From: an uncultured Opitutia bacterium
GTDB taxonomy: Bacteria; Verrucomicrobiota; Verrucomicrobiia; Opitutales; Opitutaceae
Assembly (NCBI GenBank): GCA_903861185.1
Contig: CAIOTK010000356.1
Coordinates: 1-52,178 of the forward strand
DNA: 52,178 nucleotides
Reading direction: 5' to 3'
Shown: piece after piece, positions 1,022-51,023 of the stretch
Layout of the letters: the number at the start of each line of letters is the position of its first letter
How positions within the stretch are numbered: position 1 is the stretch's first letter
Notes under the pieces: model-generated
Seen by the model: only the letters and a program-made list of their open reading frames with translations
The model's database searches: none
Told to the model about the DNA's origin: nothing
Translations under genes and position numbers: made by a program

Positions 1022-1582
1022 ATGCTCCCGCTGCGTTGCTTCGTCCTGCTCTTCGCCGGGACGCTCCACGCCCAAAACCTCCCGGTGGAGGTAGCCAACC
1101 TCAGGGAGGACGTGAGGGGGCTATCGCAACGCTTAGGCGAACTCGCGCTGCGCGTTGAACAGCTGGAGCGGGAGAATGCCGAGTTGCGGGGACAAGTGGG
1201 TGCGGCGGGCCGAGCGCAGGTGACGCTTGCCCAGTTGCGGGAGTCGCTCGCGGAGTCGGCACGCGAGACGCGCGCCGCCGTCGCCGCCAGCAAAGCTGAG
1301 ACCCTCCAGCAGGTTGCCGCGCAGATGGAAAAATTGGCGAAGCAGACCAACGCCGCGCTGGAGTCGCTCGCGCGTCCGAACGGCGGGCGCGCCGCTACGG
1401 CGGGCTTCACCGAAGATTTCCCGCGCGAGGGCGTCAGCTACACGGTGCAGAAGGGGGACACCTTGGCGGTGATCGCCCGCAAGACTGGCGCGCGTGCGCA
1501 AGACATCATCAACGCCAACAAGCTGGCCGATCCCTCCCGGATCCAGGCCGGACAGGTCCTTTTCATCCCAGGAGGAAAATAA
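1022..1582 (+). CDS. Secreted coiled-coil protein with C-terminal LysM domain
   Basis: Predicted envelope protein of 186 aa that should bind peptidoglycan. Seen: a short hydrophobic N-terminus (MLPLRCFVLLFAGTLHAQ) that reads as a signal peptide with cleavage after HA; a heptad-like, Leu/Glu/Gln/Ala-rich segment from about residue 24 to 115 (coiled coil); then one LysM domain at about 140-183 (YTVQKGDTL ... IINANKL ... LFIPGGK). LysM domains bind N-acetylglucosamine in glycan strands. The ATG at 1022 is chosen because it is the first start that gives a signal peptide; the frame is open further upstream but overlaps fmt with low-complexity Arg/Ser/Gly sequence. Its last codons contain the Shine-Dalgarno of parB, so the two are probably co-transcribed. 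No catalytic domain is visible. It could be an oligomeric, YbgF-like scaffold, but no TPR is present. Confidence 0.82.
   Translation: MLPLRCFVLLFAGTLHAQNLPVEVANLREDVRGLSQRLGELALRVEQLERENAELRGQVGAAGRAQVTLAQLRESLAESARETRAAVAASKAETLQQVAAQMEKLAKQTNAALESLARPNGGRAATAGFTEDFPREGVSYTVQKGDTLAVIARKTGARAQDIINANKLADPSRIQAGQVLFIPGGK
1570..1575 (+). promoter_or_regulatory. Shine-Dalgarno of parB
   Basis: AGGAGG lies 11 nt before the ATG at 1587 and inside the end of the LysM gene. It fixes the parB start. It is the only strong SD motif I find ahead of any start codon in this window. Confidence 0.75.
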
Positions 1583-1586
1583 ATCG

Positions 1587-2537
1587 ATGCCGGCTGCTCC
1601 CAAATCACGTCTCGGTCGCGGCCTCGGCGGCCTTATCGCCGCCGCTCGTCCCGCCCAGCCTGCGGGAACGCCCCCCGCTGCCACTCCGGCGGCTACTCCC
1701 GCCGCCTCGGCTCCGGCTGCTGCGGCCGTCTCCGTCGTGGCGGCGCCCGGCTTCCAGGAGATTGCCGTTAGCCTCGTCGAGCCCAGCCCCTACCAGGCCC
1801 GGCGCGAGATCGCGCCCGAGCAGTTGCAGGAGCTGGCCGAGAGTATCCGTGCGGAGGGCCTGCTCCAGCCAATCGTGGTGCGAAGGCACGGCGAGCGCTT
1901 CCAGCTGATCGCCGGCGAGCGCCGCTGGCGCGCGTTTCAGCTGCTCAAGATCAAGTCGATTCCCGCCCGCTTGGTCGAGGCGAGCGACGCTTCCTCGGCC
2001 GCGATCGGCCTAATCGAAAACCTCCAGCGGGAGGGACTCAATCCCCTCGAGGAGGCGCAGGGCTACGCCAGCCTGATTCGCGATTTTGATCTAACGCAGG
2101 ACACGGCTGCGGAGCGCGTGGGCCGCGGCCGCGCCACGGTCGCCAACTCCCTGCGCCTGCTCTCCCTCGAGGCGGAATTACAGGGGTACCTAGCGAAGGG
2201 TCTCCTGTCGGTTGGGCACGCTAAAGTGTTGCTCGGAGTCGAGCCTGGCGCGGCCCGGACGGTGCTCGCGCGTCGAGTCCTCGAGGAGGGGCTCAGTGTG
2301 CGGGCCGCGGAAAAGGCTGCCCAAGCCTCGCGGCGCGCGCCCGGATCCCCGCGGGCCGGCCGGACTGCCCGTCCGGAGGACGCCGCCGCCGTGGCCGGCA
2401 TCGAGCGCAAGCTTACTTCCCACCTCGGCGCTCGGGTAGCGGTGCTCCATACCGCGCGTCGTGGGCGCATCGTCATCGAGTACCGCGGCAACGAGGACCT
2501 GCAGCGGCTGCTCGAGAAGCTCGGCGTCGAGGCCTGA
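1587..2537 (+). CDS. parB: ParB family chromosome-partitioning protein
   Basis: CTP-dependent DNA-binding protein that loads at parS sites and spreads to organise origin segregation, normally with the ParA ATPase. 316 aa. The N-terminus has the typical ParB start (KSRLGRGLGGLIAAA, which contacts ParA in the family), then an Ala/Pro-rich linker to about residue 55. The ParB/Srx nuclease-like CTPase domain includes EGLLQPIVVRR and the GERRWRA box near residue 110. The helix-turn-helix is around 160-190 (TAAERVGRGRATVANSLRLL), and the C-terminal dimerisation domain ends IVIEYRGNEDLQRLLEKLG. The ATG at 1587 is set by the SD. No parA is present beside it, and I saw no consensus parS nearby, so this may be separated from parA or lie just downstream of it across the left edge. 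It converges with the dehydratase gene across 9 nt. Confidence 0.93.
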   Translation: MPAAPKSRLGRGLGGLIAAARPAQPAGTPPAATPAATPAASAPAAAAVSVVAAPGFQEIAVSLVEPSPYQARREIAPEQLQELAESIRAEGLLQPIVVRRHGERFQLIAGERRWRAFQLLKIKSIPARLVEASDASSAAIGLIENLQREGLNPLEEAQGYASLIRDFDLTQDTAAERVGRGRATVANSLRLLSLEAELQGYLAKGLLSVGHAKVLLGVEPGAARTVLARRVLEEGLSVRAAEKAAQASRRAPGSPRAGRTARPEDAAAVAGIERKLTSHLGARVAVLHTARRGRIVIEYRGNEDLQRLLEKLGVEA

Positions 2538-2546
2538 CGCCCGCGT

Positions 2547-4499: not shown

Positions 4500-4500
4500 C

Positions 4501-6123
4501 TCAGGTTGTCCTCCGCGCGGCGAGGGGTTCGCGGGTCGGCCGGCCGTCGACCAGCCGGAGGAGCCCCAGCGGGTTGGCGTCCTGCAAGGCCGACGGTAGC
4601 AGCGCGTCTGGAAATCCCTGATAGCAGACGGGGCGGGCGAAGCGCAGGATTGCGGCCGTGCCCACCGAAGTGAAGCGGCTGTCCGTGGTCGCCGGGTAGG
4701 GGCCGCCGTGGTGCATCGCGGGGCAGACTTCGACGCCGGTCGGGAATCCGTTGAGGACGAGCCGCCCGGCCCGTTCCGCCAGCAGTTGCCGCAAGGCGGC
4801 GGCCCCGGCCAGGTCCTCTGCCGTGCCGTGGAGGGTGGCGGTGAGCTGTCCCTGTAGAGAGGCGGCACCGGCGGAGAGCGCGGCAGTGTCCGCAGCCTCA
4901 ACCACCAACGTGAAGGGGCCGAACGCTTCCTCAGCCAATTCGGGGTGGGTGAGGAAGTGCTCCATGGTCGTGCGCGCCACCACGGGCCGCGCCTCGTGGC
5001 GTTCGGGAGCGGGCTCGGTGGCTCCGCCGGCCCATAGGGTTACCCCTCCGGTGCCAAGGAGCCGCTGTTGGTTGGCGAGGAACGCCCCGCGGATGCCTGG
5101 GGTGAGCATCGTGCCGCACGGGGCGGCACGCACGCCGGCTGCGAGGACCGCGAGGAACGCTTCAGTGGCCTCACCGCGCACTGCGAAGACGAGGCCCGGC
5201 TTGGTGCAGAATTGGCCAACTCCCAGCGTGAACGAGGCGAGGAGCCCCGCCGCGATTTCCGCGCCGCGCTCCCGCAGGGCGCCCGGCAGGAGGAAGACGG
5301 GATTCAGGCTGCTCATCTCGGCGAAGACCGGGATCGGTCGCGGCCGCGTCGCCGCTGCGTCGTGGAGCGCGCGCCCCGCTGCCTGCGAGCCGGTGAAGCC
5401 CACGGCCGCCGTCACCGGATGGCGCACGAGCCGCACGCCCAAAGTCGCACCCTCGCCGTGGAGTTGGGAAAAGACTCCCGCCGGCAGGCCCTGCGCTGCC
5501 ACCGCGCGGGCCACCGCTCCGGCCACGAGCTCGGCCGTGCCCGGATGCGCCCGGTGCGCCTTGACCACCACGGGGCAACCGGCCGCCAGCGCGGACGCCG
5601 TGTCCCCACCAGCGGTCGAGAACGCGAGGGGGAAGTTGCTCGACCCAAAGACCACGACGGGCCCCACCGGCCGCAGCATCCGGCGAACATCGGGCCGCGG
5701 CAGCGGCTTCCGCTCCGGGAGCGCGGGATCGAGGCGCGCGTCCACCCAGGAGCCCTCCCGGACCAGTTGGGCGAAGAGCCGCAGTTGCCCGCACGTGCGC
5801 GCCCGCTCGCCGGTCAGACGGGCAACTGGCAGCCCGGTCTCCGCTGCCGCCCGGGCGATCAGCGTCTCACCGAGTTCCTCGATTTGGCCCGCGATGGCTT
5901 CGAGAAGAGTCGCGCGGATCTCCGGTGTGGTCTCTGCAAAGGTGGCCTGCGCCGCGCGGGCGAGTTCCAAAGCTCGATCCGCCTCCATCGGCGAAGCCTC
6001 GTGGAAGTCCGGCGCGAGCGCCACGCCACCGGCGGGATCGATGGCCCGGAAGGTTTTGCCGCCGGGACCACCCCGGTCGCCGGCGACCAGGCTGAACCCG
6101 TGCAGGGAAGGGGAGGGGGACAT
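4501..6123 (-). CDS. 2,5-dioxovalerate (2-oxoglutarate semialdehyde) dehydrogenase
   Basis: NAD(P)-dependent aldehyde dehydrogenase, 540 aa, that makes 2-oxoglutarate from its semialdehyde at the end of Weimberg-type pentose or hexarate oxidation. Visible catalytic apparatus: N163 in [11 protein letters not shown]188 in [10 protein letters not shown], glutamate E269 in [11 protein letters not shown] (the EMSSLNP sequence is characteristic of the 2-oxoglutarate-semialdehyde branch) and nucleophile C306 in [10 protein letters not shown]. The C-terminal [24 protein letters not shown] segment, read here in two parts ([17 protein letters not shown] and YPATTD), is also typical of this branch. Start ATG 6123 gives the expected family length; an open frame further upstream has no family similarity. 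It is the first gene of a two-gene unit with the dehydratase. Divergent from the ceramidase-domain gene, with only 103 nt between starts for both promoters. Confidence 0.88.
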
Positions 6124-6226
6124 GCAGCGATGTTCGCGAGCCGGCGCCGCGTGCCAAGCCGGACTTACGCCGTTCGCTGGGGGCTCGACGCCTTGGGAGC
6201 AGTGCGTCACGGATGGGTTCGCCCCG

Positions 6227-7639
6227 ATGAAGCCTGCCGCCCCGCTCCCCCGTCGTCCCGCGTTTCCTCTTCTCGCGCTGTTCCTGCTGCTCGCCCTCGT
6301 CTCCCCCGCGGCCCCGGCCGACCCGCTAGTGCCGGTCGGCGTGGCGCGAATCGACATCACCCCGGAATTGCCGATCCGGCTGACCGGCTACCAGTCCCGC
6401 GCCACGGAGGCGGCCCGGATCGGCGCCCCGCTGCACGCGCGCGCCTTGGCGCTCGGCGCTGATGCGGACGGCCCGGTGGTGCTGGTTACCGCGGAACTGA
6501 TCGGGATCGGGGAGGAGACCGCCCGGGTCGTGGCCGAAGCCCTCGAGCGCCGCTTCGGGCTGCCCCGCGCCCGCCTCGCCCTCTGCGCGACACACACCCA
6601 CAACGGCCCGGCCCTCGCGGATGTGCTCCCCTATATGTTCGCGCGCGATCTTCCGCCTGAGGAGACCGCCCGCATCGCCGCCTACACCGCCCGACTGCGG
6701 GAGCGGCTGATCGAGGTCGCGGCGACCGCGCTGGCCGACCGCCGTCCCGCCCGCGTGGCGTGGACTCAGGGCAGCGTCGGCTTCGCCACCCAGCGCCGCC
6801 AGGTGGTGGACGGCAAATGGAAGGGCTTCGGGATCGTGCCGGGCGGGCCCGTCGACCACGCGCTGCCGGTGCTGCGCGTTGCCGCGCCGGACGGGGCGGT
6901 GCGGGCGCTGTTTCTCAACTACGCGTGCCATTGCACGACGCTCGGGGGAACGGACAACTTTGTGCACCCCGACTGGGCGGGAGATGCCGCGACGCGCCTC
7001 GAGGCGGCCCACGCGGGGGCGTCAGCGCTGGTAGCGATCGGCTGTGGTGCTGACGCGAACCCAGGCCTGCCGCGCGGCCCCGAAGGCGTGCCCGTGCACG
7101 GTGCCGCGGTCGCCGCAGAGGTCTCGCGCCTCCTTGCCGGCGCCTGGCGGCCGCTTGGGCCCGTCACCGCCGCCGCCTACCGCGTCGTCACGCTCCCGCT
7201 GGATCCGCTGCCCGACCGGGCCGCGTTGGAGGCTCGGCGTGGCCCTGGTTCCCGCGCGCCGGCGCAGTACGCGGCCGGCCGCTTCCTCGCGGAACTGGCG
7301 GCCGGTCGCCCGCTGCCCTCCGCCGTGCCCCTTCCCGTGCAGGCGTGGACCTTCGGTCGCGACCTCGCGATGGTGTTTCTCGGCGGGGAGGTGGTCGCGG
7401 AGTACGCCCTGCGCCTGCGCCGCGAACTCGACGCCCCGCGCCTCTGGGTGAACGCCTACGCTAATGCGGTGCCCTGCTACCTTCCGTCGCGTCGGATGTA
7501 CCCGGAAGGCGGGTACGAGGTCGACGGCTCGATGGATTACTACGGCTGGCCGACGCGCCTCCGCGCGGACACGGAGGACCTCTTGGTCGGCGCGGCCGTG
7601 AACCTCGTGCCGGCCGAGTATCGTGCACTTGGGCGCTGA
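6227..7639 (+). CDS. Secreted neutral/alkaline ceramidase-domain protein
   Basis: 470-aa exported protein with the N-terminal zinc-hydrolase fold of neutral/alkaline non-lysosomal ceramidases (Pfam family PF04734). Seen: signal peptide (hydrophobic LLALFLLLALVSPAAPA, residues 15-31); opening VGVARIDITPELPIRLTGY, which is the usual start of this fold; a His-rich metal-site segment CATHTHNGP (120-128); a second histidine region NYACHCTTLGG followed by HPDWAGD; and GCGADANP. True ceramidases are about 650 aa with a C-terminal Ig-like domain, which is absent here. Such short versions are common and multi-copy in Planctomycetes and Verrucomicrobia, and their substrate is unknown, so ceramide hydrolysis should not be assumed. 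Start ATG 6227 is the first that gives the signal peptide. The heme-binding dehydrogenase follows after 52 nt on the same strand. Confidence 0.8.
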   Translation: MKPAAPLPRRPAFPLLALFLLLALVSPAAPADPLVPVGVARIDITPELPIRLTGYQSRATEAARIGAPLHARALALGADADGPVVLVTAELIGIGEETARVVAEALERRFGLPRARLALCATHTHNGPALADVLPYMFARDLPPEETARIAAYTARLRERLIEVAATALADRRPARVAWTQGSVGFATQRRQVVDGKWKGFGIVPGGPVDHALPVLRVAAPDGAVRALFLNYACHCTTLGGTDNFVHPDWAGDAATRLEAAHAGASALVAIGCGADANPGLPRGPEGVPVHGAAVAAEVSRLLAGAWRPLGPVTAAAYRVVTLPLDPLPDRAALEARRGPGSRAPAQYAAGRFLAELAAGRPLPSAVPLPVQAWTFGRDLAMVFLGGEVVAEYALRLRRELDAPRLWVNAYANAVPCYLPSRRMYPEGGYEVDGSMDYYGWPTRLRADTEDLLVGAAVNLVPAEYRALGR

Positions 7640-7691: not shown

Positions 7692-10631
7692 ATGCGCGTG
7701 GATCGACTTCCCCGTCTCCTGCTCCCCCTCCTCGCGTGGCTCTCCTGCGGCTACAAAGAGGTGGCGCCGCCCCCTCAGGTCGTGCTGCCGGCGCCGCTGG
7801 CGGCCGCGGCATCTCTCGCGGCGATCCAAGTGCCCGCAGACTTGGAAGTGGAACTGGTTGCCGCTGAGCCCGCCGTTCTCGATCCCGTCGATCTCGCGTG
7901 GGGTGCGGATGGCCGACTCTGGGTAGTGGAAATGGCCGATTACCCGCGCGGCCTCGACGGCAAGGGTCAGCCGGGCGGCCGGATCCGCGTGCTGGAATCT
8001 ACGCGCGGCGACGGCCGTTACGACCGTTCCACCCTTTTTGCGGACGGACTTCGTTCGCCGACGGCGGTGCTGCCGTGGCGTTCGGGTGTCCTCGTCGTGG
8101 CGGTGCCGGACCTGCTGTTTCTCGAGGACACCGATGGCGACGGCCGGGCCGATGTGCGGCGCGCGCTGTTCACGGGACTAGCGGAGGGCAACGAGCAGCA
8201 CCTGAGCAACGGCCTCCAATGGAGTCTGGACGGCTGGGTGCACCTCGCCAATGGCAACAGTGGGGGCAAGGTGCGGCGCGCGGGCGCCAATGGCCCCGTG
8301 GTCGAGCTCGGCCAGCGTGACTTTCGCCTCCGGCCCGACTCCGGGGAGATCGAGACGGTGGCGGGCCAGACGCAGGCGGGCCGCAACCGGGACGACTGGG
8401 GCAACTGGTTCGGGGGTAATAATTCCAACCCGATCTGGCACTATGCCCTGGAGGAACACTACCTGCGGCGCAACCCGCGGCTCGTCCCGCCTTCCGCCAC
8501 CGTGACGGTCGCCGCCATCCCCGGAGCGGCCCGCGTCTATCCGCGGAGCGAGACTCTCGCGCGGTTCAACGACGGCTTCGCGGCTAACCATTTCACCTCC
8601 GCGTGCGGGACGGTGATCTACCGCGATGTCCTGCTCGGTCCCGGGTATGCGGGTAATGTCTTCGTGTGCGAGCCCGTTCATAACCTCGTCCACCGCGAGG
8701 TGTTGGCGGCCGATGGCGCCACGTTCCACAGCCGTCGGCCGGAGTCCGAAGCGAACTCCGAGTTCTTGGCCTCGACTGACGCTTGGTCGCGGTTTGTCGC
8801 GGCGCGGGCGGGACCCGATGGCGCGCTGTACTTGGCCGATATGTATCGGCTAGTGATTGAGCATCCGCAGTGGATCCCGGACGCGTGGCAGCGAGTGCTT
8901 GGCGATCTGCGGGCCGGGCACGAAAAGGGGCGCATCTACCGGATCCGGCCGCGCGGAGGAGCGTTGCGGACCGTGCCCCGGCTCGACCGCGCTGACGCGG
9001 CGGGGCTGGCCGAGGCGCTGCGTTCGCCGAGCGGCGCGTTGCGCGATCTGGCCCAGCAGCAAGTGGAGTGGCGCCGGCCGGACGGGGCGGCGGCGGTCGT
9101 GGAGCAGGTGGCGCGGGGAGCGGAACTCCCGGCCGCGCGGGCGCAGGCGCTGTGGGCGTTGCAGGGGATCGGGGCGCTGAATCCAGCGGCGCTCTTGCGC
9201 GCGCTGCGCGATCCGCACGCGGGCGTGCGGCGACAGGCGGTACGACTCAGCGAGGTCATTGGGGCCACGGAGCCGGGGCTGCGCGCGGCGGTGATCAGCC
9301 TGGTTGAAGACCCCGCCGCCGCGGTGCGCCAGCAGGTGGGCTACACGTTGGGCGAGTGGCTGGGCGCGGAGGCGGGTGAGGCGCTCGCCCGGCTACTGGT
9401 CCGGGAACGGGATCGCTATGTGCGCGCGGCCGCCCTGAGTTCCGCGCTGCCGCACGCCGAGGTGGTGCTGGAATCCCTGCACACCGCCGGACCTGCGCAA
9501 GCCCCGCTGGTGGCGGAGATCGCGGCGGCCACCGCCAACACTCGAGCACTCACCCGGTTGCTGGCGGCGGTGCCCGCCGCGCTGGAGCGGGGTGAACTGG
9601 GGCTAGGGCTGAAGGCCTTGGGTGAGCTGTTGGATCTCCTGCAGCGGCAGGGTCAGACGCTCGCCCGGTTACACGCCGACTCCGGTGCGCCGCTTCGTCA
9701 GGCGCTCGAGGCGCTCGACCCGGTGCTCGAGCGGGCGCGGGGGGTAGCGGCCGATCCGGCAGCCCCGGTCGGGGCGCGGCTCGCGGCCGTCGCCTTGCTG
9801 GGACGTGGGCGTGGCCAAGTGGCGGAGGACGCCGCTCGGCTCGCGGCGCTGCTGGACGCGCGGCAACCGGTCGAACTCCAGCTAGCGGCGGCGCGCGCGT
9901 TGGGCGGCATTAACCGCACCCAGACTCCCGGCCTGCTGCTTGCGGGCTGGGAGAGCCACGCCCCGCGGTTGCGCGCCGTCATTTTGGGGTTACTCGCCGC
10001 CCGGCCCGCGTGGGCGCAGGTGCTCCTCGACCGGGCCGAGCGCGACGAGGCCTTCCGCGCGCAGATCGACGCCGCGCGGCGGACCGCCCTCACCCAACAC
10101 GGGAATCCCCGCCTTGCGGATCGGGCCGCGGCGATTTTCGGGGCGGCAGACGCGGCCGGGCGGCAGGCGGTAGTCCGCGATTACCTTGCGGCCGTCGCGC
10201 CGCTGCGGGCGGATCCGCGCCGCGGGGGCGCCGTTTTCGCGCAATCGTGTAGCGCCTGCCACCGTTTCGGGCCGGTGCCGGGCAGGGCGGTCGGGCCTGA
10301 TCTGGCCGTGGTGAAAGATCGCAGTCCCGAGTACCTGATCGGGCACATTTTGGATCCGAACCGCGCCGTCGAGGACCGTTATCTGTTCTACACCGCCAAC
10401 CTCGCGGACGGCCGCACCGCGGTGGGGATGCTCGCGGCCGAGTCCGCTGGCTCGCTCACGCTCTTGGGGCTCGACGGAGAGGAGCAGGTTATCCTGCGGA
10501 GTGAACTGCGGACCCTGATCAGTTCGGGGCGCTCCTTGATGCCAGAGGGGCTCGAGGCGGCGGTAGATGCGCAGGCGATGGCGGACCTCGTCGCTTTTCT
10601 AGCGTCCCCGGAGACGGCCAGAATGCGCTGA
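7692..10631 (+). CDS. PVC-type heme-binding membrane-associated dehydrogenase
   Basis: 979-aa extracytoplasmic protein of the planctomycete/verrucomicrobial type in which a beta-propeller 'putative membrane-bound dehydrogenase' domain is joined to HEAT-like repeats and a c-type heme domain (TIGR02604 and TIGR02603 families). Seen: hydrophobic N-terminus with a cysteine (AWLSCGY, near residue 19) that may be a non-canonical lipobox; propeller from about 45 to 430 (EVELVAAEPAVLDPVDLAWG, DGRLWVVEMADYP, LADMYRLVIEHPQW); Ala/Arg/Leu-rich helical repeats from about 440 to 800; CSACH heme motif at 853-857; then SLMPEGLE near 950 as the likely Met axial ligand. Probably oxidises an organic substrate, perhaps a sugar alcohol or aldose, and passes electrons to the periplasmic chain; substrate unknown. 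The ATG at 7692 is preferred because the upstream in-frame part overlaps the previous gene. It stops flush against tyrS. Confidence 0.86.
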   Translation: MRVDRLPRLLLPLLAWLSCGYKEVAPPPQVVLPAPLAAAASLAAIQVPADLEVELVAAEPAVLDPVDLAWGADGRLWVVEMADYPRGLDGKGQPGGRIRVLESTRGDGRYDRSTLFADGLRSPTAVLPWRSGVLVVAVPDLLFLEDTDGDGRADVRRALFTGLAEGNEQHLSNGLQWSLDGWVHLANGNSGGKVRRAGANGPVVELGQRDFRLRPDSGEIETVAGQTQAGRNRDDWGNWFGGNNSNPIWHYALEEHYLRRNPRLVPPSATVTVAAIPGAARVYPRSETLARFNDGFAANHFTSACGTVIYRDVLLGPGYAGNVFVCEPVHNLVHREVLAADGATFHSRRPESEANSEFLASTDAWSRFVAARAGPDGALYLADMYRLVIEHPQWIPDAWQRVLGDLRAGHEKGRIYRIRPRGGALRTVPRLDRADAAGLAEALRSPSGALRDLAQQQVEWRRPDGAAAVVEQVARGAELPAARAQALWALQGIGALNPAALLRALRDPHAGVRRQAVRLSEVIGATEPGLRAAVISLVEDPAAAVRQQVGYTLGEWLGAEAGEALARLLVRERDRYVRAAALSSALPHAEVVLESLHTAGPAQAPLVAEIAAATANTRALTRLLAAVPAALERGELGLGLKALGELLDLLQRQGQTLARLHADSGAPLRQALEALDPVLERARGVAADPAAPVGARLAAVALLGRGRGQVAEDAARLAALLDARQPVELQLAAARALGGINRTQTPGLLLAGWESHAPRLRAVILGLLAARPAWAQVLLDRAERDEAFRAQIDAARRTALTQHGNPRLADRAAAIFGAADAAGRQAVVRDYLAAVAPLRADPRRGGAVFAQSCSACHRFGPVPGRAVGPDLAVVKDRSPEYLIGHILDPNRAVEDRYLFYTANLADGRTAVGMLAAESAGSLTLLGLDGEEQVILRSELRTLISSGRSLMPEGLEAAVDAQAMADLVAFLASPETARMR

Positions 10632-11912
10632 TCAGGCTAGCTCCAGCACGGCGTAGCTGCGCTTGCCCTTGCGCAGCAGCACGTATCGGCCGTGGAGCAC
10701 GTCGGCCTCGCCGATGGTACGGGTGACTTCCGCGGCGCGCTGGTTGTTCACGTAGATTCCGCCGCCCTCAATGTCCTTGCGCGCCTGGCCCTTTGACGGG
10801 CAGAGGCCGGCGTGGACGAGCAGATCCCCGAGTGGGGCGCCAACGCCACCGAGGCGGGTGCGTTCGAGCGCGTGTCGCGGGATCTCGGAGATGATGTCCT
10901 GGAAATCCTCGGGCGTGAGTCCGTCGAGTGGGCCGCCGAACAGCGCATCGCTGGCGCGAAGGGCCCCGGCCAGTCGAGTCTCGCCGTGCACGAGCCGGGT
11001 CATCTCGCGGGCAAGGGCCTTCTGCGCGGCGCGGGCGCCTGGGTTCGCGGCGACCTCGCGCTCGAGTGCCGCGATCTCCTCCGCGCCGAGAAAGGTGAGG
11101 GTTCGCAGCAGCTTGCCGACGTCCGCGTCGTCGGCGTTCACGAAGAACTGGTAGAAGCGGTAGGGCGAGGTGCGGCGCGGATCCAGCCAGACGGTGCCGG
11201 TCGCGGTCTTACCGTACTTGGAGCCGTCGGCTTTGGTCAGGAGGGGGAACACGAGGCCCCACACGGTGGCGCCGAGTTTCTTGCGGGTCAGTTCCGTGCC
11301 GACGGTGATGTTGCCCCACTGGTCGGTGGCGCCGATCTGGAGCTCGCAGCCGAGGGCGTGGCGCAGGTGGTAGAAATCGTAGCCCTGGAGCAGCATATAG
11401 CTGAACTCCGTGTAGCTGATTCCAGCCTCGCGGTCCTCCATTCGGGAACGGACCGAGTCCTTCGCCACCATTGAGTTGACGGAAATGTGCTTGCCGACGT
11501 CGCGCAGGAACTCGAGCAGCGTGAGCGGTCCGGTCCAGTCGTGGTTGTTGACGAGGCGGGCGGGGTTAGCGCGGACGTCGAAGTCGAGGAACTGGGTGAG
11601 TTGGCTCCGGATCGCGGCGATGTTGTGCTCGACCTGCTCCGAGGTCTGCAGGTTGCGCTCCGCGGACTTGCCGGAGGGATCTCCGACCATCCCGGTGGCG
11701 CCGCCAGCGAGGGCGATGGGGTGGTGGCCAAGGAGCTGGAAGCGGCGCAGCGCCAGCAGCGGCACGAGGTTGCCGACGTGCAGTGAGTCGGCGGTGGGAT
11801 CGAAGCCGCAGTAGAGCGTGATTGGCCCCTGGTCGAGGCGGGCGCGGAGCGCGACGGGATCGGTGCAGTCGGCGAGGAGGCCGCGCCAGCGCAGCTCATC
11901 GAGGATGTTCAT
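10632..11912 (-). CDS. tyrS: Tyrosyl-tRNA synthetase
   Basis: Charges tRNA(Tyr) with tyrosine in the cytoplasm. 426 aa, the usual bacterial length. Class I signatures: HVGN at 45-48 in place of HIGH, and KYGKT at 232-236 as the KMSKS-equivalent loop. Tyrosine-pocket sequences YCGFDPTADSLH and SYMLLQGYDF ... QIGATDQWGNI are all present. The C-terminal S4 RNA-binding domain (LGDLLVHAGLCPSKGQARKDI) completes it. Start ATG 11912 begins MNILDELRWRG, as expected; an upstream extension of the frame has no family similarity. Its stop codon touches the stop codon of the convergent dehydrogenase gene. It is divergent from the peroxiredoxin gene with 169 nt between; I see no SD and no T-box element in that gap. 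Confidence 0.97.
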   Translation of the reverse strand: MNILDELRWRGLLADCTDPVALRARLDQGPITLYCGFDPTADSLHVGNLVPLLALRRFQLLGHHPIALAGGATGMVGDPSGKSAERNLQTSEQVEHNIAAIRSQLTQFLDFDVRANPARLVNNHDWTGPLTLLEFLRDVGKHISVNSMVAKDSVRSRMEDREAGISYTEFSYMLLQGYDFYHLRHALGCELQIGATDQWGNITVGTELTRKKLGATVWGLVFPLLTKADGSKYGKTATGTVWLDPRRTSPYRFYQFFVNADDADVGKLLRTLTFLGAEEIAALEREVAANPGARAAQKALAREMTRLVHGETRLAGALRASDALFGGPLDGLTPEDFQDIISEIPRHALERTRLGGVGAPLGDLLVHAGLCPSKGQARKDIEGGGIYVNNQRAAEVTRTIGEADVLHGRYVLLRKGKRSYAVLELA

Positions 11913-12081
11913 GCGGGACTTAGGAGTAAACGGAGGGTGGACACGTGCGCGCAAGTGCGGATTCCGCGCGCTGACGGGCGCGAGAATCGATTTGCGGGCC
12001 GCCGGGGCGCCGCTCAACGTGAACTTTCCTCCCGGGACCACGTGCCCGGATCTGACCAACCGCCAACTCATCGCCCTCCCT

Positions 12082-12595: not shown

Positions 12596-12640
12596 CGCCT
12601 GCGTTCCCGTGTCCCCTGCGGCAGCCTTCCCCGTTTCCTC

Positions 12641-15343
<2,703 letters not shown>

Positions 15344-15393
15344 CCCGAGCGCCGGTCGCGGGCGCGCGGGCGTCCCGGCCGGCTCCCCGCCTG

Positions 15394-17259: not shown

Positions 17260-18602
17260 CAGGGGGAGAGGCTAGCCCGGCGCAGGTCCTCCAAGACCGC
17301 GAAGAAGCCGGGAAAGGTCTTCGCGCAGCAGCCAGGGTTGGCGAGGGTCAACCAAGGCCGGCCATCTCCCCGGAGGTCGTGGCTGCCGAGAATCGCGAAA
17401 CTCATCGCGAAACGGTGGTCGCCGTACGTGTCGATAATTTGGTCGGTCCGCAGCGGTCGCGGAATGATCTCCAGCGCACCCTCTTCCTCGCGCACTTCTT
17501 GGCCTAGCCGGCGGAGTTCCCGCGCCATCCCAGCTACGCGGTCGGTCTCCTGCTTGCGCGTGTGGGCGATCCCCTCGATTCGGGTCGTTCCGGCGAGCAA
17601 AGGCGCGATCGCCGCCAGGGTGAGGAAGGTGTCCGAGAAACCGCTGAAGTTGGTGTGGGTACCCCGTGGATGTCCCGGCTGGGCCGTCACGCGCACGCCC
17701 GCGGGATCCGCGGTCACCTGAAGACCGCAGCCTTCCAGCACCCGGATGAACTGAGTGTCACCCTGCAGGCCCCGTCCGGGAGGATGCAGCCCCGGTAGGG
17801 TTAGGGTACCTCCGGCGACCAACGGGAGCGCGAGGAAGTAGCTCGCGGCGGTCGCGTCCGGTTCAATGCCGCAAGTGCCGCCAGGGGGCGCGTAGACGGG
17901 GTGGGGTTGGACGACAATGAGCTCTGGCGTCCGCCAAACCGGGGTCGGTTGGCCGAAGCGGGTCAGCAGCGCCGCGGTCATGTCCACGAAGGGGCGCCGC
18001 ACTTCACCGGTCAGGCGAATCTCGACCTCCGTCCGGGCGAGCGGGGCGACCAGCAGGAGCGCGGAGAGGAGTTGGCTGCTTTCGCGGGGATCTAGCTCGA
18101 CCCGCCCGCCGGCGAGGCCGCGGGCGCGGATCTCGAGGGGGAAGAAGCCTTCTTCGCCCGGACAGCGGATATCCGCGCCGAGTTGACGGAGGGCCTGAAT
18201 CAAGGGCTGCATCGGCCGGCGCCGCATTTGCGGCACGCCGTCGAGCCGGTAGGTGCCCGCCGGGGCCGCCGCGCAGAGAGCGGTGAGGAAGCGCGCCGCG
18301 GTCCCCGCAAGCCCCACGAACAGATCCGCGTCCCCGCCCCGAAAGGCGTGTTCCTGACCTGAGATCTGAAGGGTGGTGCCGTCACCGTCGGCGTCCACCC
18401 GCACGCCGAGGCGGCGCAGGGCCTCCGCCATTAGGTGGGTGTCCTCGCTTGCCAGTGCCCCTGTGAGAGTCACCGGCCCGCGGGAAACCGCGGCGAGCAG
18501 GAGCGCCCGGTTGGTAAGGCTCTTGGACCCCGGCAGGCGGACCTCACCTCGGGGCGGCCGGACGAACGGCGTGAGGGAGAGGTGATCAGGGAGCGGCGAC
18601 AC
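17259..18602 (-). CDS. aroA: 3-phosphoshikimate 1-carboxyvinyltransferase (EPSP synthase)
   Basis: Sixth step of the shikimate pathway: joins phosphoenolpyruvate to shikimate-3-phosphate. 447 aa from the chosen start. Landmarks: LPGSKSLTNRALLLAAV (active-site lysine K27 in this numbering), GLAGTAARFLTALCA (the glyphosate/PEP-site loop, here as G-x-A-G-T-A rather than N-x-G-T), SSQLLSALLLVAPLA, and TYGDHRFAMSFAILG near the C-terminus. Two starts are possible: TTG at 18644, adding MALSLPPPSIRLSA, or GTG at 18602. I prefer GTG because it begins right before PLPDHLSLTPF, the usual position, and TTG is a weak codon. It ends overlapping cmk by one base. The upstream gap to lspA is 81 nt. Confidence 0.93.
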   Translation of the reverse strand: MSPLPDHLSLTPFVRPPRGEVRLPGSKSLTNRALLLAAVSRGPVTLTGALASEDTHLMAEALRRLGVRVDADGDGTTLQISGQEHAFRGGDADLFVGLAGTAARFLTALCAAAPAGTYRLDGVPQMRRRPMQPLIQALRQLGADIRCPGEEGFFPLEIRARGLAGGRVELDPRESSQLLSALLLVAPLARTEVEIRLTGEVRRPFVDMTAALLTRFGQPTPVWRTPELIVVQPHPVYAPPGGTCGIEPDATAASYFLALPLVAGGTLTLPGLHPPGRGLQGDTQFIRVLEGCGLQVTADPAGVRVTAQPGHPRGTHTNFSGFSDTFLTLAAIAPLLAGTTRIEGIAHTRKQETDRVAGMARELRRLGQEVREEEGALEIIPRPLRTDQIIDTYGDHRFAMSFAILGSHDLRGDGRPWLTLANPGCCAKTFPGFFAVLEDLRRASLSP

Positions 18603-23099: not shown

Positions 23100-23158
23100 A
23101 CCGGGAAAAGGGGCGGAGGGTAGGGTCGCCCCGGGGAGAGTCAAGGGTCGCCCCCCGG

Positions 23159-24189: not shown

Positions 24190-24190
<1 letters not shown>
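23159..24190 (-). CDS. hemE: Uroporphyrinogen decarboxylase
   Basis: Decarboxylates uroporphyrinogen III to coproporphyrinogen III in heme synthesis. 343 aa, the family length. Signature 1 is WVMRQAGRYLPEYRALK near residue 22, with the catalytic arginines. FSDILVIPEALG carries the catalytic aspartate, and GFGGSPWTLATYMVEG is signature 2. IFDSWGGII and the terminal FNLGHGITP are also typical. The start ATG overlaps the hemF stop by one base (TGATG), so hemF-hemE form a coupled pair in pathway order hemE then hemF. Heme demand may be linked to the c-type cytochrome proteins in the window, which is inference. Confidence 0.97.
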
Positions 24191-25968
<1,778 letters not shown>

Positions 25969-40886: not shown

Positions 40887-42444
40887 GGTAATCGGGGTTG
40901 GGGTCCATCACGGCGGCGCCGACGGAGTGCTGCCAGTGGCGCAGGCGTTCGGTCAGCGCTTGGGCGAGGGCGGGCTGGCTGGCGGCGAGATCCTCCTGCT
41001 CGCCCGGATCGACGCGCAGGTTGAAGAGTTGGACGCGCTGCTGCTCAAAGTAGAGGAGCAGTTTGTGGTCGCCAGCGCGGATGGCGGCGCCCGGACTCTG
41101 GCGCCCGTGGTTGCTGTAGTGGGGGAAGTGCCAGAAGAGCGCGTCGCGCGTGGGGGCCTGACCGCCGCGTAACAACGGGGCCAGACTCACGCCGTCGCGA
41201 TGCTGCTCCGGCAGCGCCGGCAGGCCTGCGAGTTCAAGGATCGTGGGGTAGAGATCCGTGCTGATAACCGGTACCTCGCTCACCACGCCGCCGCGCACCC
41301 CGGCTCCGGGTGCCCGGATCATCAGGGGCACGCGGATGCCGCCCTCGTAGAGCCAGCCCTTGGCGCCACGGAGGGGCAGGTTGGAGGTGGAGTAAGCCGC
41401 GTCGAGCGCGTTGGCCGCGACCACCCGGTCGGGCCGGCCGAAGTTGGCGGCGGACATCCCGCCATTGTCGGAGACAAAGATGACGAGGGTCTGCTCGGCG
41501 AGCCCGAGTTCGTCGAGTTTGACGGTTAACCGGCCGAAGTTCTGGTCCAGGTTCTCGACCATCGCGGCGAACACGGGGTTGTCCTGGTGCTGGCGGATCT
41601 TGACGGTCCGGTTGGGGAAAATGCGGTGCGCAGCAAACTCCTCGCTGCTGCCGAGCGCCGTGAGTTCCGCGCGCGTCGGCGGCAGCGGGTCATCCGGATT
41701 GCCCTCGAGTACATAGGATGGTCCTTTGGGTTTCGGTCGCGCGGCGAGCTTGGCCCGGTATTTGGACACCAGTGTGGCCGGCGCCTGGATCGGGTCGTGC
41801 ACCGCAAAGTGAGAGAGGTAGAGGAAGAACGGCCGGTCGCGGTGCTCTTCCACCCAGCGCAGCGCCTCGTCGGTAAGGCGGTCGGTCAGGTACTGGCCGG
41901 GCGCGTCCGAGATCCCCTCCAGTTTGAAGGGAGCGTGGAAGCCCGGGTTCGGCCAGCCTTTGTTCCAGCGAGGGACTTGGACATCAAAGCCCTGGGCGCG
42001 CGGGCCATTCGGCTCCTCGCCGAGGTGCCACTTGCCAAAGTGTCCGGTGGCGTAGCCGCGGGCGCGCAGGGCCTCCGCGAGCGTCGTCTCCTCAAGGGGC
42101 AGGTGCTGGCGCACGGGCGCGTTGCGCAGGCGTTGGAAGGGGAACTCTTTTCGACCGGGGAGCCAATCCGTCAGGTGCAGCCGAGCCGGGTATTTGCCGG
42201 TGAGGATGCTGGCGCGCGTGGGCGAGCAGACGTGGCAGGCGGCATAGGCGTCGGTGAAACGGACCGACTCGCGGGCGAAGCGGTCTAGATTGGGCGTCTC
42301 GTGAAAGGTGCTGCCGTAGCTGCCGAGGTCGCGCCAGCCGAGGTCGTCGATGAGGACGAGAATTACGTTGGGCGGGCGCGCGGGGGCGGCGGCCGCGGTG
42401 GGGAACGGGAGCAGCGCGAGGGCGAGGAGAGGGAGGAAGCGCAT
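40873..42444 (-). CDS. Exported formylglycine-dependent sulfatase
   Basis: 523-aa sulfatase (alkaline-phosphatase superfamily) that hydrolyses sulfate esters outside the cytoplasm. Signal peptide MRFLPLLALALLPFPTAAAA. Metal aspartates D33 and D34 in VLIDDLGWRDLG. The modification site CSPTRASILTG has C73 (C-x-P-x-R), which must be converted to formylglycine; no modifying enzyme is encoded here. GHFGKWHLG and FVSDNGG supply the remaining active-site residues. Length and order match the S1 family, but the sub-family (fucose, galactose or other sulfate) cannot be told by eye. It lies 12 nt after the TonB receptor and overlaps the next gene by 14 nt. Confidence 0.92.
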   Translation of the reverse strand: MRFLPLLALALLPFPTAAAAPARPPNVILVLIDDLGWRDLGSYGSTFHETPNLDRFARESVRFTDAYAACHVCSPTRASILTGKYPARLHLTDWLPGRKEFPFQRLRNAPVRQHLPLEETTLAEALRARGYATGHFGKWHLGEEPNGPRAQGFDVQVPRWNKGWPNPGFHAPFKLEGISDAPGQYLTDRLTDEALRWVEEHRDRPFFLYLSHFAVHDPIQAPATLVSKYRAKLAARPKPKGPSYVLEGNPDDPLPPTRAELTALGSSEEFAAHRIFPNRTVKIRQHQDNPVFAAMVENLDQNFGRLTVKLDELGLAEQTLVIFVSDNGGMSAANFGRPDRVVAANALDAAYSTSNLPLRGAKGWLYEGGIRVPLMIRAPGAGVRGGVVSEVPVISTDLYPTILELAGLPALPEQHRDGVSLAPLLRGGQAPTRDALFWHFPHYSNHGRQSPGAAIRAGDHKLLLYFEQQRVQLFNLRVDPGEQEDLAASQPALAQALTERLRHWQHSVGAAVMDPNPDYREIR

Positions 42445-42456
42445 CGGCGGGAAGGG

Positions 42457-45400
42457 TCAGAAGTCGCGTTTCACGCGGAGGATGTAGTCGCGCAGGCGGA
42501 TGCTGCCGTAGCGGCTGTAGAAGAACGGCGCGCGGTTGTTCCCGGCGTCGAAGGCGGGTTCGGTGCCGAGGACATTGTTCAGGGTGAACTGCACGGAGAG
42601 GCGGCGCAGGTAGGGCCAGCGGTGACGCGGCCCGAAGGCGTGGCTGATATTCAGGTGGTGGAAGGTCTGGGCGGCGACCCTAAACCCGCCCTGGGGCCCG
42701 GTGCTCGTGGTGATCAAGTTGGGATTAGCCGCGCCGAGGTAGACTGGGTCGCCCGGCGCGCCGGCCTGCCGGTAGCCGCCGTGGTGCACCGCGCTCCACG
42801 AGGCGCGCCAGCCGCGGCCGCCGGACCAGCTGAGCGTGAAGTTGGCCTTCGCGCGGTTCGTACCGCCGGAGTTTGGATAGCCCACGTATTCGAGCGCCGG
42901 GTAGCCGATCGCCGGCGGCAGCTGGAGGTTCTCGGTAAGGGTCGCGCGGGCGCGCGCGGCGAAGACGCCGATGGGCGTGGTGCGCCGATAGTCGACCGAG
43001 GCGTCCCAGCCGTCAGTGAGGCCATCGCCGACGTTGTAGAACGCGAAGGTGAAGAGCTCAATGCGGCGCGTCGCCGGGTCCCGCTGGATGCTACCCGCCG
43101 GGGCGCGGTCGCCCATATTGGCCAGCTGCTGCACGTTGTTCACGTTGCGGATGAGGCCGGTCTTCGCGATCCGCCAGTACTCGAGGTTGACGCGGAGGTC
43201 CTTGAGCGCGCCCTGCGGCTCCCAAATGACGCCGCCCGCCCAGTTGCGCGAGGTCTCGGGGCCGAGGGCGGGATTGTTTCCCGCCACGCTCAGCGAGGTG
43301 TAGCTGGTGCCGGTCACCGGGTCGAAGAAGACGGCGGTGGGAGTGGCCGCGGAGAGCCCGCCGGTGTTGATCCGCTGCGTGAGCTGCGCGAAGGTCGGCG
43401 GGAGAAACGCCTCGGCGTAGGACGCACGGAGGGTCAGCGTGTGGAAGGGCTGGTACTTGAGGCCGAGCGTGGGTTTGGTGGCGCGTAGCCGCGCGATGTC
43501 CTGCCGGCTCTCGGTGGCGCTGCGGGTGATGCGCGGGAAGGGCGGCGAGTCGGGGAAGATGTTCACGCGCCCGTCCGGGTTGGTGTAGACGTTGAACCGC
43601 TCGGTGCGGACCGCCGCCTGCAGGTCGAGCGCGCGGAGCAGCGGGCGCTCGTTGCGGCCCGAGACCAGTGGGAGGCTCACCTCGGCGTGCGCGGCGTAGG
43701 TCGAGATGCGCTGCCCGATGAAGTAGGAGTGCTGGTTGGTCGGGTTAGCGGTCGCGGGCGGCAGCGGGGGGAAGGTGCCGCCGACGTAGGCCTGCGGCAG
43801 GCGCTCCGTGTAGATCTCGGTGCCCAGCGTGAGCACCGGACGGCCGCCGGGCAGGTCAAACACTGGGCCTGAGCCGCGCAGGTTGTAGTCCAGCATCGTG
43901 TCTCGGTTATACCCGGTCCAGCGCCCGTAGTAGCGCTCGAGTTCAAGCGGGTGCGCGATGGTGTCGACGAAGGGGTTCAGCCCGCCGGTCCACAGCAGCG
44001 GGGCGTTCCCACCGAAGGTGGTCGCGTTGGTCAGGTTCATCAGCGGGTAGTCGATCTTCTGCGAAGTCACGGAGTAATTGACGTCGGCCGCGACGCGCCA
44101 ATCAGCGGGGAGCTTCAGCAGCGCGCCGAACACGCCGCCGCCGACCCAGTTGGTCACATCGTTGGGGACGGACTGGCGCAGCGGGATCGGCAGGCTGATA
44201 AAAACGTTCTCGCGGAACGGATTCGCGGGCGAGTTTCCGGGCACCGCGAACTGGTAGGCGCCGTTGCCGAGCGGCACCCAGCGGGCCTCGAGGGTCGCGC
44301 TGCGGTTGAAGGCGAAGTCGGCGAAGAGGTTTAGCCGGGCGTTCACCTGATGGTCGACGCGCGCCATCAGGGCCTCCTTGCGGGGGACGTGGACCAGCGT
44401 GCTCTCGAGGCCGCGCCACACGCTCGGGGCGAAGTCCAGGTTGTAGCGGCCCGCGTTGGCGAGCAGGCCGGCGTCGAGGGTCGCGCGCGGCGTCGAGGGC
44501 GAGATGCCGTAGGGGATGTGGGTGAGGCGCGAGTTGAGGGGCTGGCCCGTAGACTTGAGGGTCAGCGTCGCCGTCTGCGCGTTGGCGAAGCCGTTCACCG
44601 CGGCGTTGTTCAGCACGATGTTCGGGGTCGCTCCGCTCGTGAAGGTGGCCGTCGGCGAGTAGAACGTGGCGGGGCTGTTGGCCACGGCGCGCCGGAAGTT
44701 CTCCATCAGAAACGGACGGTCCTTCAGCCGCAGCGGCTTACCGTCGGAGTAGCTGCCGCTGACCGTGATGTGGGTCCGCCGACCGAGGGAGAAGCCGTAG
44801 ATCCCGCTCACCGTCCGGATGGGGGCATCGGTATCGAAGGTGTTCTGGTAGCTGGCCGAGACCTGGCCGCCGGTGTAGCTGCGCTTGAGGATCACGTTCA
44901 CGACGCCCCCGACGGCGGTGCCGCCGTAGAGCGCCGAAGCGCTGCCGGGGAGCACCTCGACGCGCTCGACCGCCGCCAGCGGGATGCCGTTCACGTCTGG
45001 CTGGAAAGTGACGCCGCGGTTCGCGAGGTTCGAAGTGCGCTGGCCGTTGATCAGGATCAGCGTCTGCGACGCGCCGAGCCCGCGGAGGTTGATGGAACTC
45101 GAGGCGCCCAGCTGGTTGGTGAGAGCGCTCGGGTCGATCTGCGCGTTGGTTTCCATCACCGAATTCTGCGTCAGGCTGTCGCGCAGCACCTCGTCGAGGT
45201 CGTTTCGCCCGGAGGACTCGATCTCCTCCGCGCTCAGGATGTAGTACGCTTGGGCGTCGTTGATCCCGCGGGGGATGTCCATATTCGCGTCGGAGAACGG
45301 CACGGGCTTCTTGTCGAACACCTTGAACTCGGACATCACGCGCACCTCCTCGGCCGAGGGGGGCGGCGCGGCGGGGGCGGGTGGACGCACCTGGGCCCCG

Positions 45401-45496: not shown

Positions 45497-45499
45497 CAC

Positions 45500-50149: not shown

Positions 50150-50201
50150 GCCGTTTGCGCTCCGGCTGTCTCCGGCCACGGTTCGCCGCTCTTCATTCCT
50201 C

Positions 50202-51023
50202 GTGAATCCGCTCCTCGGTCTCCCGCTCCTCGCCGGACTGCTCCTGCTCTCCGGGTGCTATACCAACCCCGTCACGGGCCGCCGCTCGTTGGTCCTGCTC
50301 TCGCAGGGGCAAGAGGCGCAGTTGGGGACGCAGTCCTTCCAGCAGATTCGCCAGAAGGAGAAGGTCGCCGCCGATCCGGGCGCGAATGCCCGGGTGCAGC
50401 GAGTGGGGCAGCGGATCGCGACGGTGGTGGGGGATGCGCTCCCGGGCGCCCGCTGGGAGTTTGTCGTCTTTGAGTCGAAGGAGCTGAACGCCTTTGCGCT
50501 GCCTGGCGGGAAAGTAGGGGTCTACACAGGCCTGCTGGAACTCGCCGAGAGCGATGCAGAGTTGGCCACGGTGATGGGACACGAGATTGGACACGTGATC
50601 GCGCGCCACGGCGCGGAGCGGATGTCGGAGGCGATGGTGATCGCCGGCATCGGGATCGCGGGTTCGGTCGCGGTGGAGGCTAATTCCAACGACCCGCGGA
50701 TGCGCGACCTCTTCGCTTTGGCTTACGGTGGTGGTACCACGCTGCTGCGCGTGCTCCCGCACTCCCGCGCCAACGAGACCGAGGCGGATCGGATGGGGAT
50801 GCTCTACGCGGCGCGCGCAGGCTACGATCCGCGGGGCGCCGTCTCCTTCTGGCGCAAGATGGCGGCGCGGAAGCAGGCCGCCGCATCCGGGCCGCGACTG
50901 CCGGCCTTCCTCTCCACGCACCCCGCTGACGATCGTCGGATCGCCGAGCTAGAGGCTTTTGTTCCGACGGCGCTGCCGGTCTGGGAGCAAGCGCGTGGGG
51001 CTCGGCCGGCGGGCGGCCGCTGA
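50202..51023 (+). CDS. M48-family zinc metalloprotease lipoprotein
   Basis: 273-aa periplasm-facing peptidase. Start GTG 50202 gives a lipoprotein signal, MNPLLGLPLLAGLLLLSGC, with lipobox LSGC followed by YTNPVTGR. Zinc site HEIGH (H127, E128, H131) and the downstream glutamate in NETEADRMG are intact, as in LoiP/YcaL/BepA-type M48 proteins. No C-terminal TPR domain, so closer to LoiP or YggG than to BepA. Likely role: outer-membrane protein quality control. The GTG has a 17/20 C/T leader and no SD. Convergent with the histidine kinase gene across 9 nt. Confidence 0.9.
   Translation: MNPLLGLPLLAGLLLLSGCYTNPVTGRRSLVLLSQGQEAQLGTQSFQQIRQKEKVAADPGANARVQRVGQRIATVVGDALPGARWEFVVFESKELNAFALPGGKVGVYTGLLELAESDAELATVMGHEIGHVIARHGAERMSEAMVIAGIGIAGSVAVEANSNDPRMRDLFALAYGGGTTLLRVLPHSRANETEADRMGMLYAARAGYDPRGAVSFWRKMAARKQAAASGPRLPAFLSTHPADDRRIAELEAFVPTALPVWEQARGARPAGGR

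What the first reader, a model, noticed from the sequence alone, without database searches (positions are those of the whole stretch)
1022..50202. Start codons preceded by pyrimidine-rich leaders instead of Shine-Dalgarno motifs
Reading the 20 nt before each assigned start, only parB has a clear AGGAGG. Most others are C/T-rich: ileS 17/20, metal-transporter gene 17/20, haloperoxidase 17/20, M48 protease 17/20, acnA 16/20, peroxiredoxin 15/20, sulfatase 15/20, and STAS, cmk, hemF, tyrS and dksA-like about 14/20. In DNA with near-equal strand composition about 10/20 is expected. The pattern holds on both strands and for both housekeeping and accessory genes. It suggests initiation guided by a CU-rich or unstructured leader, perhaps through ribosomal protein S1, or a sequestered anti-SD. 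Counts were made by eye and depend on the starts chosen; two weaker cases (2-oxoglutarate-semialdehyde dehydrogenase, ceramidase-domain gene) do not show it.
Basis: partly seen in the sequence, partly recalled or inferred. Interest (0 to 1): 0.72.

Follow-up and report, generated by a model that had tools for sequence, protein, structure and literature searches.

The report
Start codons without ribosome-binding motifs
In this bacterium and its close relatives few genes carry the usual ribosome-binding motif; start codons sit instead in stretches poor in G and rich in C and T that fold little, apparently a GC-rich version of a known way of starting protein synthesis.

Summary
The window (69% GC) belongs to an Opitutaceae (Verrucomicrobiota) MAG. 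With a gene caller that ignores upstream sequence, 174 starts from 300.9 kb of this genome have 61% pyrimidine at -20..-1, against 52.5% further upstream and 50% before internal ATGs. Shine-Dalgarno (SD) cores occur no more often than in shuffled leaders; four SD-using controls reach 2.3 to 3.6 times the shuffled rate. The bias is symmetric, running through about 20 codons. C replaces G while GC falls little, which weakens local folding by about 4 kcal/mol against G/C-symmetrised controls. G is lower before starts in 12 of 15 sampled Opitutales genomes (not G053, G190, G025); in AT-richer ones A/T partly fills its place. Best explanation: SD-independent initiation at a weakly structured start site, with C/T as the high-GC solution. 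A weak UUU peak near -12..-7 leaves room for S1. The anti-SD is intact in relatives. bS21 has Phe at the Bacteroidia Tyr54 position in 70 of 70 genomes read, and rpsU keeps a very strong SD in 5 of 49 sister-family genomes but 0 of 21 Opitutaceae, so Bacteroidia-like anti-SD occlusion is plausible but unproven.

The parts
23100..23119 (-). leader of ileS (gene 20220-23099), 17/20 pyrimidines
   Evidence: start conserved in 10 of 10 orthologs, whose leaders have 13-17; Pfam tRNA-synt_1
   Evidence: start conserved in 3 of 3 orthologs
   Evidence: start conserved in 2 of 2 orthologs
50182..50201 (+). leader of M48 peptidase gene (50202-51023, GTG start), 17/20
   Evidence: 2 of 2 orthologs; Pfam Peptidase_M48
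12621..12640 (+). leader of acnA (12641-15343), 16/20
   Evidence: start codon aligned in only 6 of 11 orthologs; Pfam Aconitase
   Evidence: 11 of 11 orthologs keep the start, leaders 10-16
42445..42464 (-). leader of sulfatase gene (40873-42444), 15/20
   Evidence: start aligned in 5 of 10 orthologs, those leaders 13-19; Pfam Sulfatase
11913..11932 (-). leader of tyrS (10632-11912), 14/20
   Evidence: 8 of 8 orthologs, leaders 13-16; Pfam tRNA-synt_1b
17260..17279 (-). leader of cmk (16588-17259), 14/20; it lies inside the end of the upstream EPSP-synthase gene
   Evidence: 3 of 5 orthologs; Pfam Cytidylate_kin
25129..25148 (-). leader of hemF (24190-25128), 14/20
   Evidence: 3 of 4 orthologs; Pfam Coprogen_oxidas
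15374..15393 (+). leader of STAS-domain gene (15394-15909), 14/20
   Evidence: 9 of 9 orthologs, leaders 9-15; Pfam STAS
1570..1575 (+). AGGAGG before parB ATG 1587; within the last codons of the LysM gene 1022-1582
   Evidence: my caller instead chose GTG 1737, probably wrongly
6124..6143 (-). leader of aldehyde dehydrogenase gene (4501-6123), 11/20: exception
   Evidence: Pfam Aldedh
6207..6226 (+). leader of ceramidase-domain gene (6227-7639), 11/20: exception
   Evidence: Pfam Ceramidase_alk

Best explanation
Opitutaceae start translation largely without SD:anti-SD pairing. The start codon is made accessible by a roughly 80-nt island (about -20 to +60) in which G, the base that can pair with both C and U, is depleted. 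Because these genomes are GC-rich, G is replaced mainly by C and partly by T, so GC falls little but the mRNA folds weakly there. Shown: no SD excess, the island, weak folding that follows from G/C asymmetry, a shift at synonymous sites, and retention of pyrimidines between relatives. Inferred: that accessibility, not a protein-specific motif, marks the start, and that a UUU-type element near -12..-7, possibly through S1, helps a minority of genes.
For: SD cores in -18..-4: own 0.10 against 0.09 shuffled; same-genus G008 0.07/0.07; controls by the same caller: E. coli 0.76/0.21, S. meliloti 0.48/0.21, Novosphingobium 0.51/0.21, S. clavuligerus 0.53/0.19. Composition: C 0.48 G 0.28 at -6..-1 and C 0.48-0.49 G 0.20-0.23 at offsets 6-23 (A of ATG = 0), against C 0.37 G 0.33 at -60..-31. 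Mean folding energy of the 40-nt start window -7.75 against -12.5 at -40 and -12.9 at +80; redrawn with G=C and A=T at the same GC -11.57 (p=5e-16); S. clavuligerus, equally GC-rich, -10.1. Codon position 1 pyrimidine 0.57 in codons 2-13 against 0.42 in the body and four-fold C/(C+G) 0.69 against 0.57; codon position 1 is flat in S. clavuligerus, S. meliloti and Novosphingobium. In residues 2-11 Pro, Leu and Ser are raised, Gly, Glu, Asp and Val lowered. Pyrimidines are kept more in leaders than at -90..-46 between orthologs: 0.835 against 0.785, p=4e-5. G is lower at -20..-1 than at -60..-41 by 0.03 or more in 12 of 15 Opitutales genomes.
Against: Starts come from my own caller, which probably misplaced parB and first went antisense in G008. 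The effect is weak in G190 (Y 0.55) and G120 (0.56), and the codon-position-1 shift outside the genus is small (0.44-0.47 against 0.40-0.43). In the 18 ortholog-confirmed genes codon position 1 is 0.514 against 0.425, so part of the 0.57 may be caller bias. SD-using controls also fold less at the start, by lower GC (E. coli -4.4 against -7.6 at -40). Arrangement beyond composition adds little in this genome (shuffle -8.39, p=0.04). R-to-Y changes are not raised in leaders (0.63 against 0.62); the 119 pairs (26 genes) are not independent and the far region is often coding. GC does dip (0.67 against 0.71, ATG included). CGCC and CCGC, which hold G, also exceed leader shuffles.
Confidence: 0.72

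Rival explanations
1. Ribosomal protein S1 recognises the pyrimidine-rich leader and delivers the mRNA to the 30S subunit.
For: Full-length rpsA above the NCBIfam cut-off in G000 (621 against 577 bits). TTT starts peak at -12..-7 (0.207 per gene against 0.06-0.10 at -84..-37, rising from -30 on), and 24% of 406 leaders hold TTT in -20..-3 against 12% at -80..-63; in 330 leaders of three SD-using controls 11% and 12%. TTTC and TTTTC exceed within-leader shuffles while CCCC and CCCT fall below them (507 leaders).
Against: The main gain is C, not U; the island extends about 60 nt into the gene; the AT-rich same-order genome G022 is A-rich instead; three quarters of leaders hold no TTT.
Confidence: 0.15
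2. The anti-SD is occluded on the 30S platform by bS21, bS18 and bS6 as in Bacteroidia, which explains why SD motifs are absent; the pyrimidine island then evolved by default. This complements the best explanation rather than opposing it.
For: Canonical CCTCC at 16 of 16 16S 3' ends found in 15 relatives. bS21 has Phe at the Tyr54-equivalent place in 70 of 70 genomes read; a profile alignment puts it on Tyr54 of PDB 9i5v chain 9, and 7jil chain z (the F. johnsoniae ribosome by PMC9976891) matches over equal-length ranges, its alignment not shown. rpsU leaders hold SD matches of 9 to 11 bases in 5 of 49 non-Opitutaceae genomes (4 families) against 0 of 408 background starts with 8 or more (p=1.2e-5).
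Against: Phe, not Tyr; bS18 and bS6 contact residues not tested; rpsU lacks SD in 0 of 21 exceptions among Opitutaceae (none has one) and in 42 of 49 others by a 6-base match. The 408 background starts come from 7 families, without f7 and f25, and hits within a family are not independent. How common an aromatic is at this place in SD-using phyla was not surveyed; only E. coli (Lys) was checked.
Confidence: 0.4
3. Most mRNAs are leaderless and the upstream sequence is promoter, not leader.
For: No SD; TANNNT at -17..-3 slightly above shuffles in this genome (7 of 116 against 4.0).
Against: 5 of 113 against 5.9 in G008; genes that overlap or lie 11-40 nt behind a co-directional gene also show the bias (0.584, 0.665).
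Confidence: 0.04
4. Artefact of start choice or of codon composition.
For: Calls were unsupervised; parB was probably misplaced.
Against: 18 ortholog-conserved window starts show it equally upstream (0.639; start dG -6.9 against -12.3 at +80..+120); the same caller gives SD peaks in four controls.
Confidence: 0.03

Closest known systems
Symmetric nucleotide bias of non-SD genes (Nakagawa et al. 2017, PMC5397173; passages and sections 15 and 18 read)
   Same: Similar bias on both sides of the start, interpreted as preventing folding.
   Different: The examples named in section 15 are U/A and A; 'verrucomicrobi' does not occur in the main text. Here the bias is C/T with little loss of GC.
[quoted passage not shown] passages and section 19 read)
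   Same: Akkermansia and Verrucomicrobia bacterium IMCC26134 are listed with few SD interactions and an intact anti-SD.
   Different: Section 19 gives no leader composition or mechanism for Verrucomicrobia; 'pyrimidine' and 'opitut' do not occur in the main text.
Bacteroidia anti-SD sequestration with rpsU autoregulation (PMC9976891; abstract and passages read)
   Same: No SD, intact anti-SD, aromatic at bS21 position 54-55, very strong SD at rpsU (here only in some other Opitutales). A Bacteroidota control, a Hymenobacter plasmid (28 genes), also has Y-rich leaders (0.60) and no SD excess (0.04/0.09).
   Different: Phe in place of Tyr; rpsU SD absent in the 21 Opitutaceae read; other contacts not tested.
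Kozak-like A-3 initiation (PMC6847099; passages read)
   Same: SD-free, structure-tuned initiation.
   Different: A at -3 is 0.09 here and C at -2 is 0.62.

Membership tests
SD-scarce bacteria with intact anti-SD | SD motifs at chance level before starts | tested here: met
   0.10 against 0.09 shuffled, n=174
SD-scarce bacteria with intact anti-SD | CCUCC at the 16S 3' end | tested here: inconclusive
   No 16S found in G000; 16 of 16 16S ends found in relatives canonical, one in the same genus (G017), one more in the same family (G109)
Non-SD genes with symmetric bias | Same base bias upstream and downstream, weaker folding at the start | tested here: met
Bacteroidia-type anti-SD sequestration | bS21 Tyr54 | tested here: not met
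   Phe in 70 of 70 read; aromatic but not Tyr
Bacteroidia-type anti-SD sequestration | Extended SD upstream of rpsU | tested here: not met
   0 of 21 Opitutaceae; 5 of 49 other Opitutales with 8 or more bases
Bacteroidia-type anti-SD sequestration | 16S tail bound in the bS21/bS18/bS6 pocket | not testable with these tools
   needs a ribosome structure
Bacteroidia-type anti-SD sequestration | Conserved bS18 and bS6 contact residues | not tested
   residue list not at hand (paper not held)
Leaderless initiation | -10 promoter box just upstream of the start | tested here: not met
   7 of 116 against 4.0 shuffled; G008 5 of 113 against 5.9
S1-dependent initiation | Full-length S1 in the genome | tested here: met
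S1-dependent initiation | Initiation depends on S1 binding the leader | not testable with these tools
   needs biochemistry
Kozak-like initiation | A at -3 | tested here: not met
   A 0.09 at -3, own and G008 pooled

The most novel reading that the evidence does not exclude
Opitutales, a lineage outside Bacteroidota, hide their anti-SD by a bS21-centred pocket (Phe55 for Tyr54). The rpsU SD autoregulation circuit survives in several families and was lost in Opitutaceae, whose GC-rich genomes then settled on G-poor C/U islands spanning the start codon.
Probability: 0.35. Interest if true: 0.75.

Novelty: new variant of a known kind. Interest (0 to 1): 0.52.

Why it matters
It shows what SD-independent initiation can look like in a genome with little A/T: C replaces G, reaching into N-terminal codon choice. 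It offers gene finders a usable start signal for a largely uncultured group, and points to a second lineage in which the anti-SD may be hidden by ribosomal proteins, so that the question of how and why bacteria drop SD could be tested on two cases.

Tried and rejected
Leaderless promoters (TANNNT not clearly enriched). Kozak-like A-3. A CCUCC-type fixed motif: CCCCT, CCCTC and CCCC are below shuffles. Signal peptides as the sole cause of the downstream island: four-fold third positions and codon position 1 also shift. 16S searches in G000 and in ten family genomes, four of them single contigs, gave nothing, although single-contig genomes should hold 16S; the search is insensitive there or the stretches are withheld, so '2 of 29' and '14 of 273' say nothing about absence. 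rpsR (bS18) leaders: I printed 15 of the 25 loci cut and saw no long SD, by eye only. G008 results were discarded because the caller had followed the antisense frames (GC1 above GC3); it was reseeded. (rpsU by a motif) failed and was replaced by coordinates. One search (C-terminal half of bS21 against the PDB) gave only weak hits and was not used. Small samples, too few to weigh alone: Hymenobacter 28 genes, G053 15, G144 9, G020 13. Rows dropped before counts: genes open at the contig end, with caller score under 20, shorter than 180, 300 or 330 nt, or with less than 60 to 100 nt upstream.
Full report
Origin. The window is contig C356 of a 4.02 Mb, 514-contig MAG. A protein of the window finds 94-98% identical relatives in three MAGs titled Opitutia, Verrucomicrobia and Opitutaceae. 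Window GC is 0.67 to 0.73 by 4-kb steps; the 300.9-kb sample of this genome has 0.65.

Method. No gene finder was at hand, so I wrote one that scores codon usage against the other five frames and picks the start by coding score plus start-codon type, with no upstream information. It was run on the window plus 40 of the 514 contigs (201 genes, 174 to 177 usable starts), on relatives, on four SD-using controls and on a Hymenobacter plasmid. In G008 it first followed the antisense strand and was reseeded.

The observation. Pyrimidine at -20..-1 is 0.614 [0.591-0.635] in the genome sample, 0.525 in windows from -100 to about -46 before the same genes and 0.497 before 819 internal in-frame ATGs. 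SD cores are at shuffle level (0.10 against 0.09), while E. coli, S. meliloti, Novosphingobium and S. clavuligerus reach 0.48 to 0.76 against 0.19 to 0.21. Inside the window 15 of 32 starts have 14 or more of 20 pyrimidines. Of 28 window genes with orthologs, the 18 whose start is conserved in at least 80% of two or more orthologs give the same upstream value (0.639).

The anatomy. The bias is symmetric. Pyrimidine is 0.63 at -12..-1, 0.66-0.69 at offsets 6-29, and returns to 0.54 by offset 66. C rises from 0.37 to 0.48 and G falls from 0.33 to 0.20-0.28. In codons 2-13 pyrimidine at codon position 1 is 0.57 against 0.42 in the body, and C/(C+G) at four-fold sites 0.69 against 0.57; S. clavuligerus, S. 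meliloti and Novosphingobium are flat at codon position 1. The codon-position-1 shift is 0.53/0.41 and 0.49/0.41 in same-genus G008 and G017 but only 0.44-0.47 against 0.40-0.43 in other Opitutaceae, and 0.514/0.425 in the 18 ortholog-confirmed genes, so part of the 0.57 may come from start choice. Pro, Leu and Ser are raised in residues 2-11, Gly, Glu, Asp and Val lowered. C reaches 0.62 at -2, and A at -3 is only 0.09.

What it does to the RNA. The 40-nt start window folds at -7.75 kcal/mol on average, against -12.5 at -40 and -12.9 at +80. Redrawing each window with G=C and A=T at the same GC gives -11.57; shuffling with the same composition gives -8.39. The relaxation is therefore mostly due to asymmetry; GC dips only from about 0.71 to 0.67. 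SD-using controls relax too: E. coli from -7.6 to -4.4 with lower GC, while S. clavuligerus, with similar GC, goes only from -11.2 to -10.1.

Evolution. The eight sampled Opitutaceae genomes show SD at or near shuffle level (G053 and G144 rest on 15 and 9 genes). In seven genomes of other families SD is also low, with a slight excess in some (G025 0.27 against 0.13, G022 0.17 against 0.12, G054 and G021 0.18 against 0.12 and 0.14, G039 0.15 against 0.11) and none in G101 and G020. G is lower at -20..-1 than at -60..-41 by 0.03 or more in 12 of these 15 genomes; G053, G190 and G025 do not show it. In AT-richer G054 A rises from 0.21 to 0.32, whereas C dominates in the GC-rich ones. G avoidance is thus common but not universal, and C/T looks like its GC-rich form. 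A Hymenobacter plasmid (Bacteroidota, GC 0.54, 28 genes) also has no SD excess and Y-rich leaders (0.60), so the upstream composition is not unique to Opitutaceae. Between orthologs, pyrimidines are kept more in leaders than further upstream (0.835 against 0.785), while purine-to-pyrimidine change is not raised (0.63 against 0.62).

Machinery. The 16 16S 3' ends found in 15 relatives carry the canonical anti-SD; none was found in G000. Full-length S1 is present, and TTT peaks at -12..-7 (0.207 per gene against 0.06-0.10 at -84..-37), not in three SD-using controls. I read bS21 and its leader in 70 Opitutales genomes (30 loci, 40 stretches; rpsU was found in 55 of 57 and 99 of 105 genomes). In 70 of 70 Phe stands at the position of Bacteroidia Tyr54, where E. 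coli has Lys. The profile alignment puts it on Tyr54 of PDB 9i5v chain 9, and the F. johnsoniae chain 7jil z matches over equal-length ranges, alignment not shown. [quoted passage not shown] johnsoniae. In 49 non-Opitutaceae rpsU leaders, 5 have SD matches of 9 to 11 bases (families f3, f7, f16, f25) against 0 of 408 background starts with 8 or more (p=1.2e-5); 7 of 49 pair at -12 kcal/mol or stronger against 8 of 408 (p=0.0004). None of 21 Opitutaceae rpsU leaders does. The background comes from seven families without f7 and f25. This resembles the Bacteroidia circuit, retained in part of the order and lost in this family. It is suggestive only: the residue differs, and bS18 and bS6 contacts were not tested.

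Literature. Searches for Verrucomicrobia or Verrucomicrobiota with Shine-Dalgarno, Opitutus with translation initiation, and bS21/rpsU with Verrucomicrobi gave one paper that I judged relevant to this group, PMC10783764, which lists two Verrucomicrobia as SD-scarce. In these listings I saw none that describes the C/T island or the bS21 and rpsU features in this group; I read only the papers named here, and subscription journals are mostly not held. PMC4535381 (passages read) does not name Verrucomicrobia.

Verdict.

Noticed in passing
L227, L238, L290, L286, L292, L222 (leaders of rpsU): Strong SD (7 to 11 bases matching AAAGGAGGTGA) before rpsU in some Opitutales outside Opitutaceae, where SD is otherwise scarce.
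   Followed up: yes
window 1567-1587: AGGAGG before parB is encoded by the Gly-Gly codons at the end of the LysM gene, a possible case of operon coupling.
   Followed up: partly
window 7692-10631: Large protein (979 aa) with a DUF7133 domain at residues 39-421, function unknown.
   Followed up: no
L035 (G017:C16): The 16S gene of a same-genus genome lies in a locus of GC 0.51 with AT-rich flanks, in a genome whose sampled stretches have GC 0.65.
   Followed up: no
window about 42.0-42.4 kb, rows: Short stretches of the sulfatase gene match several places in each of the 13 genus genomes searched (list cut), consistent with a large sulfatase family.
   Followed up: no
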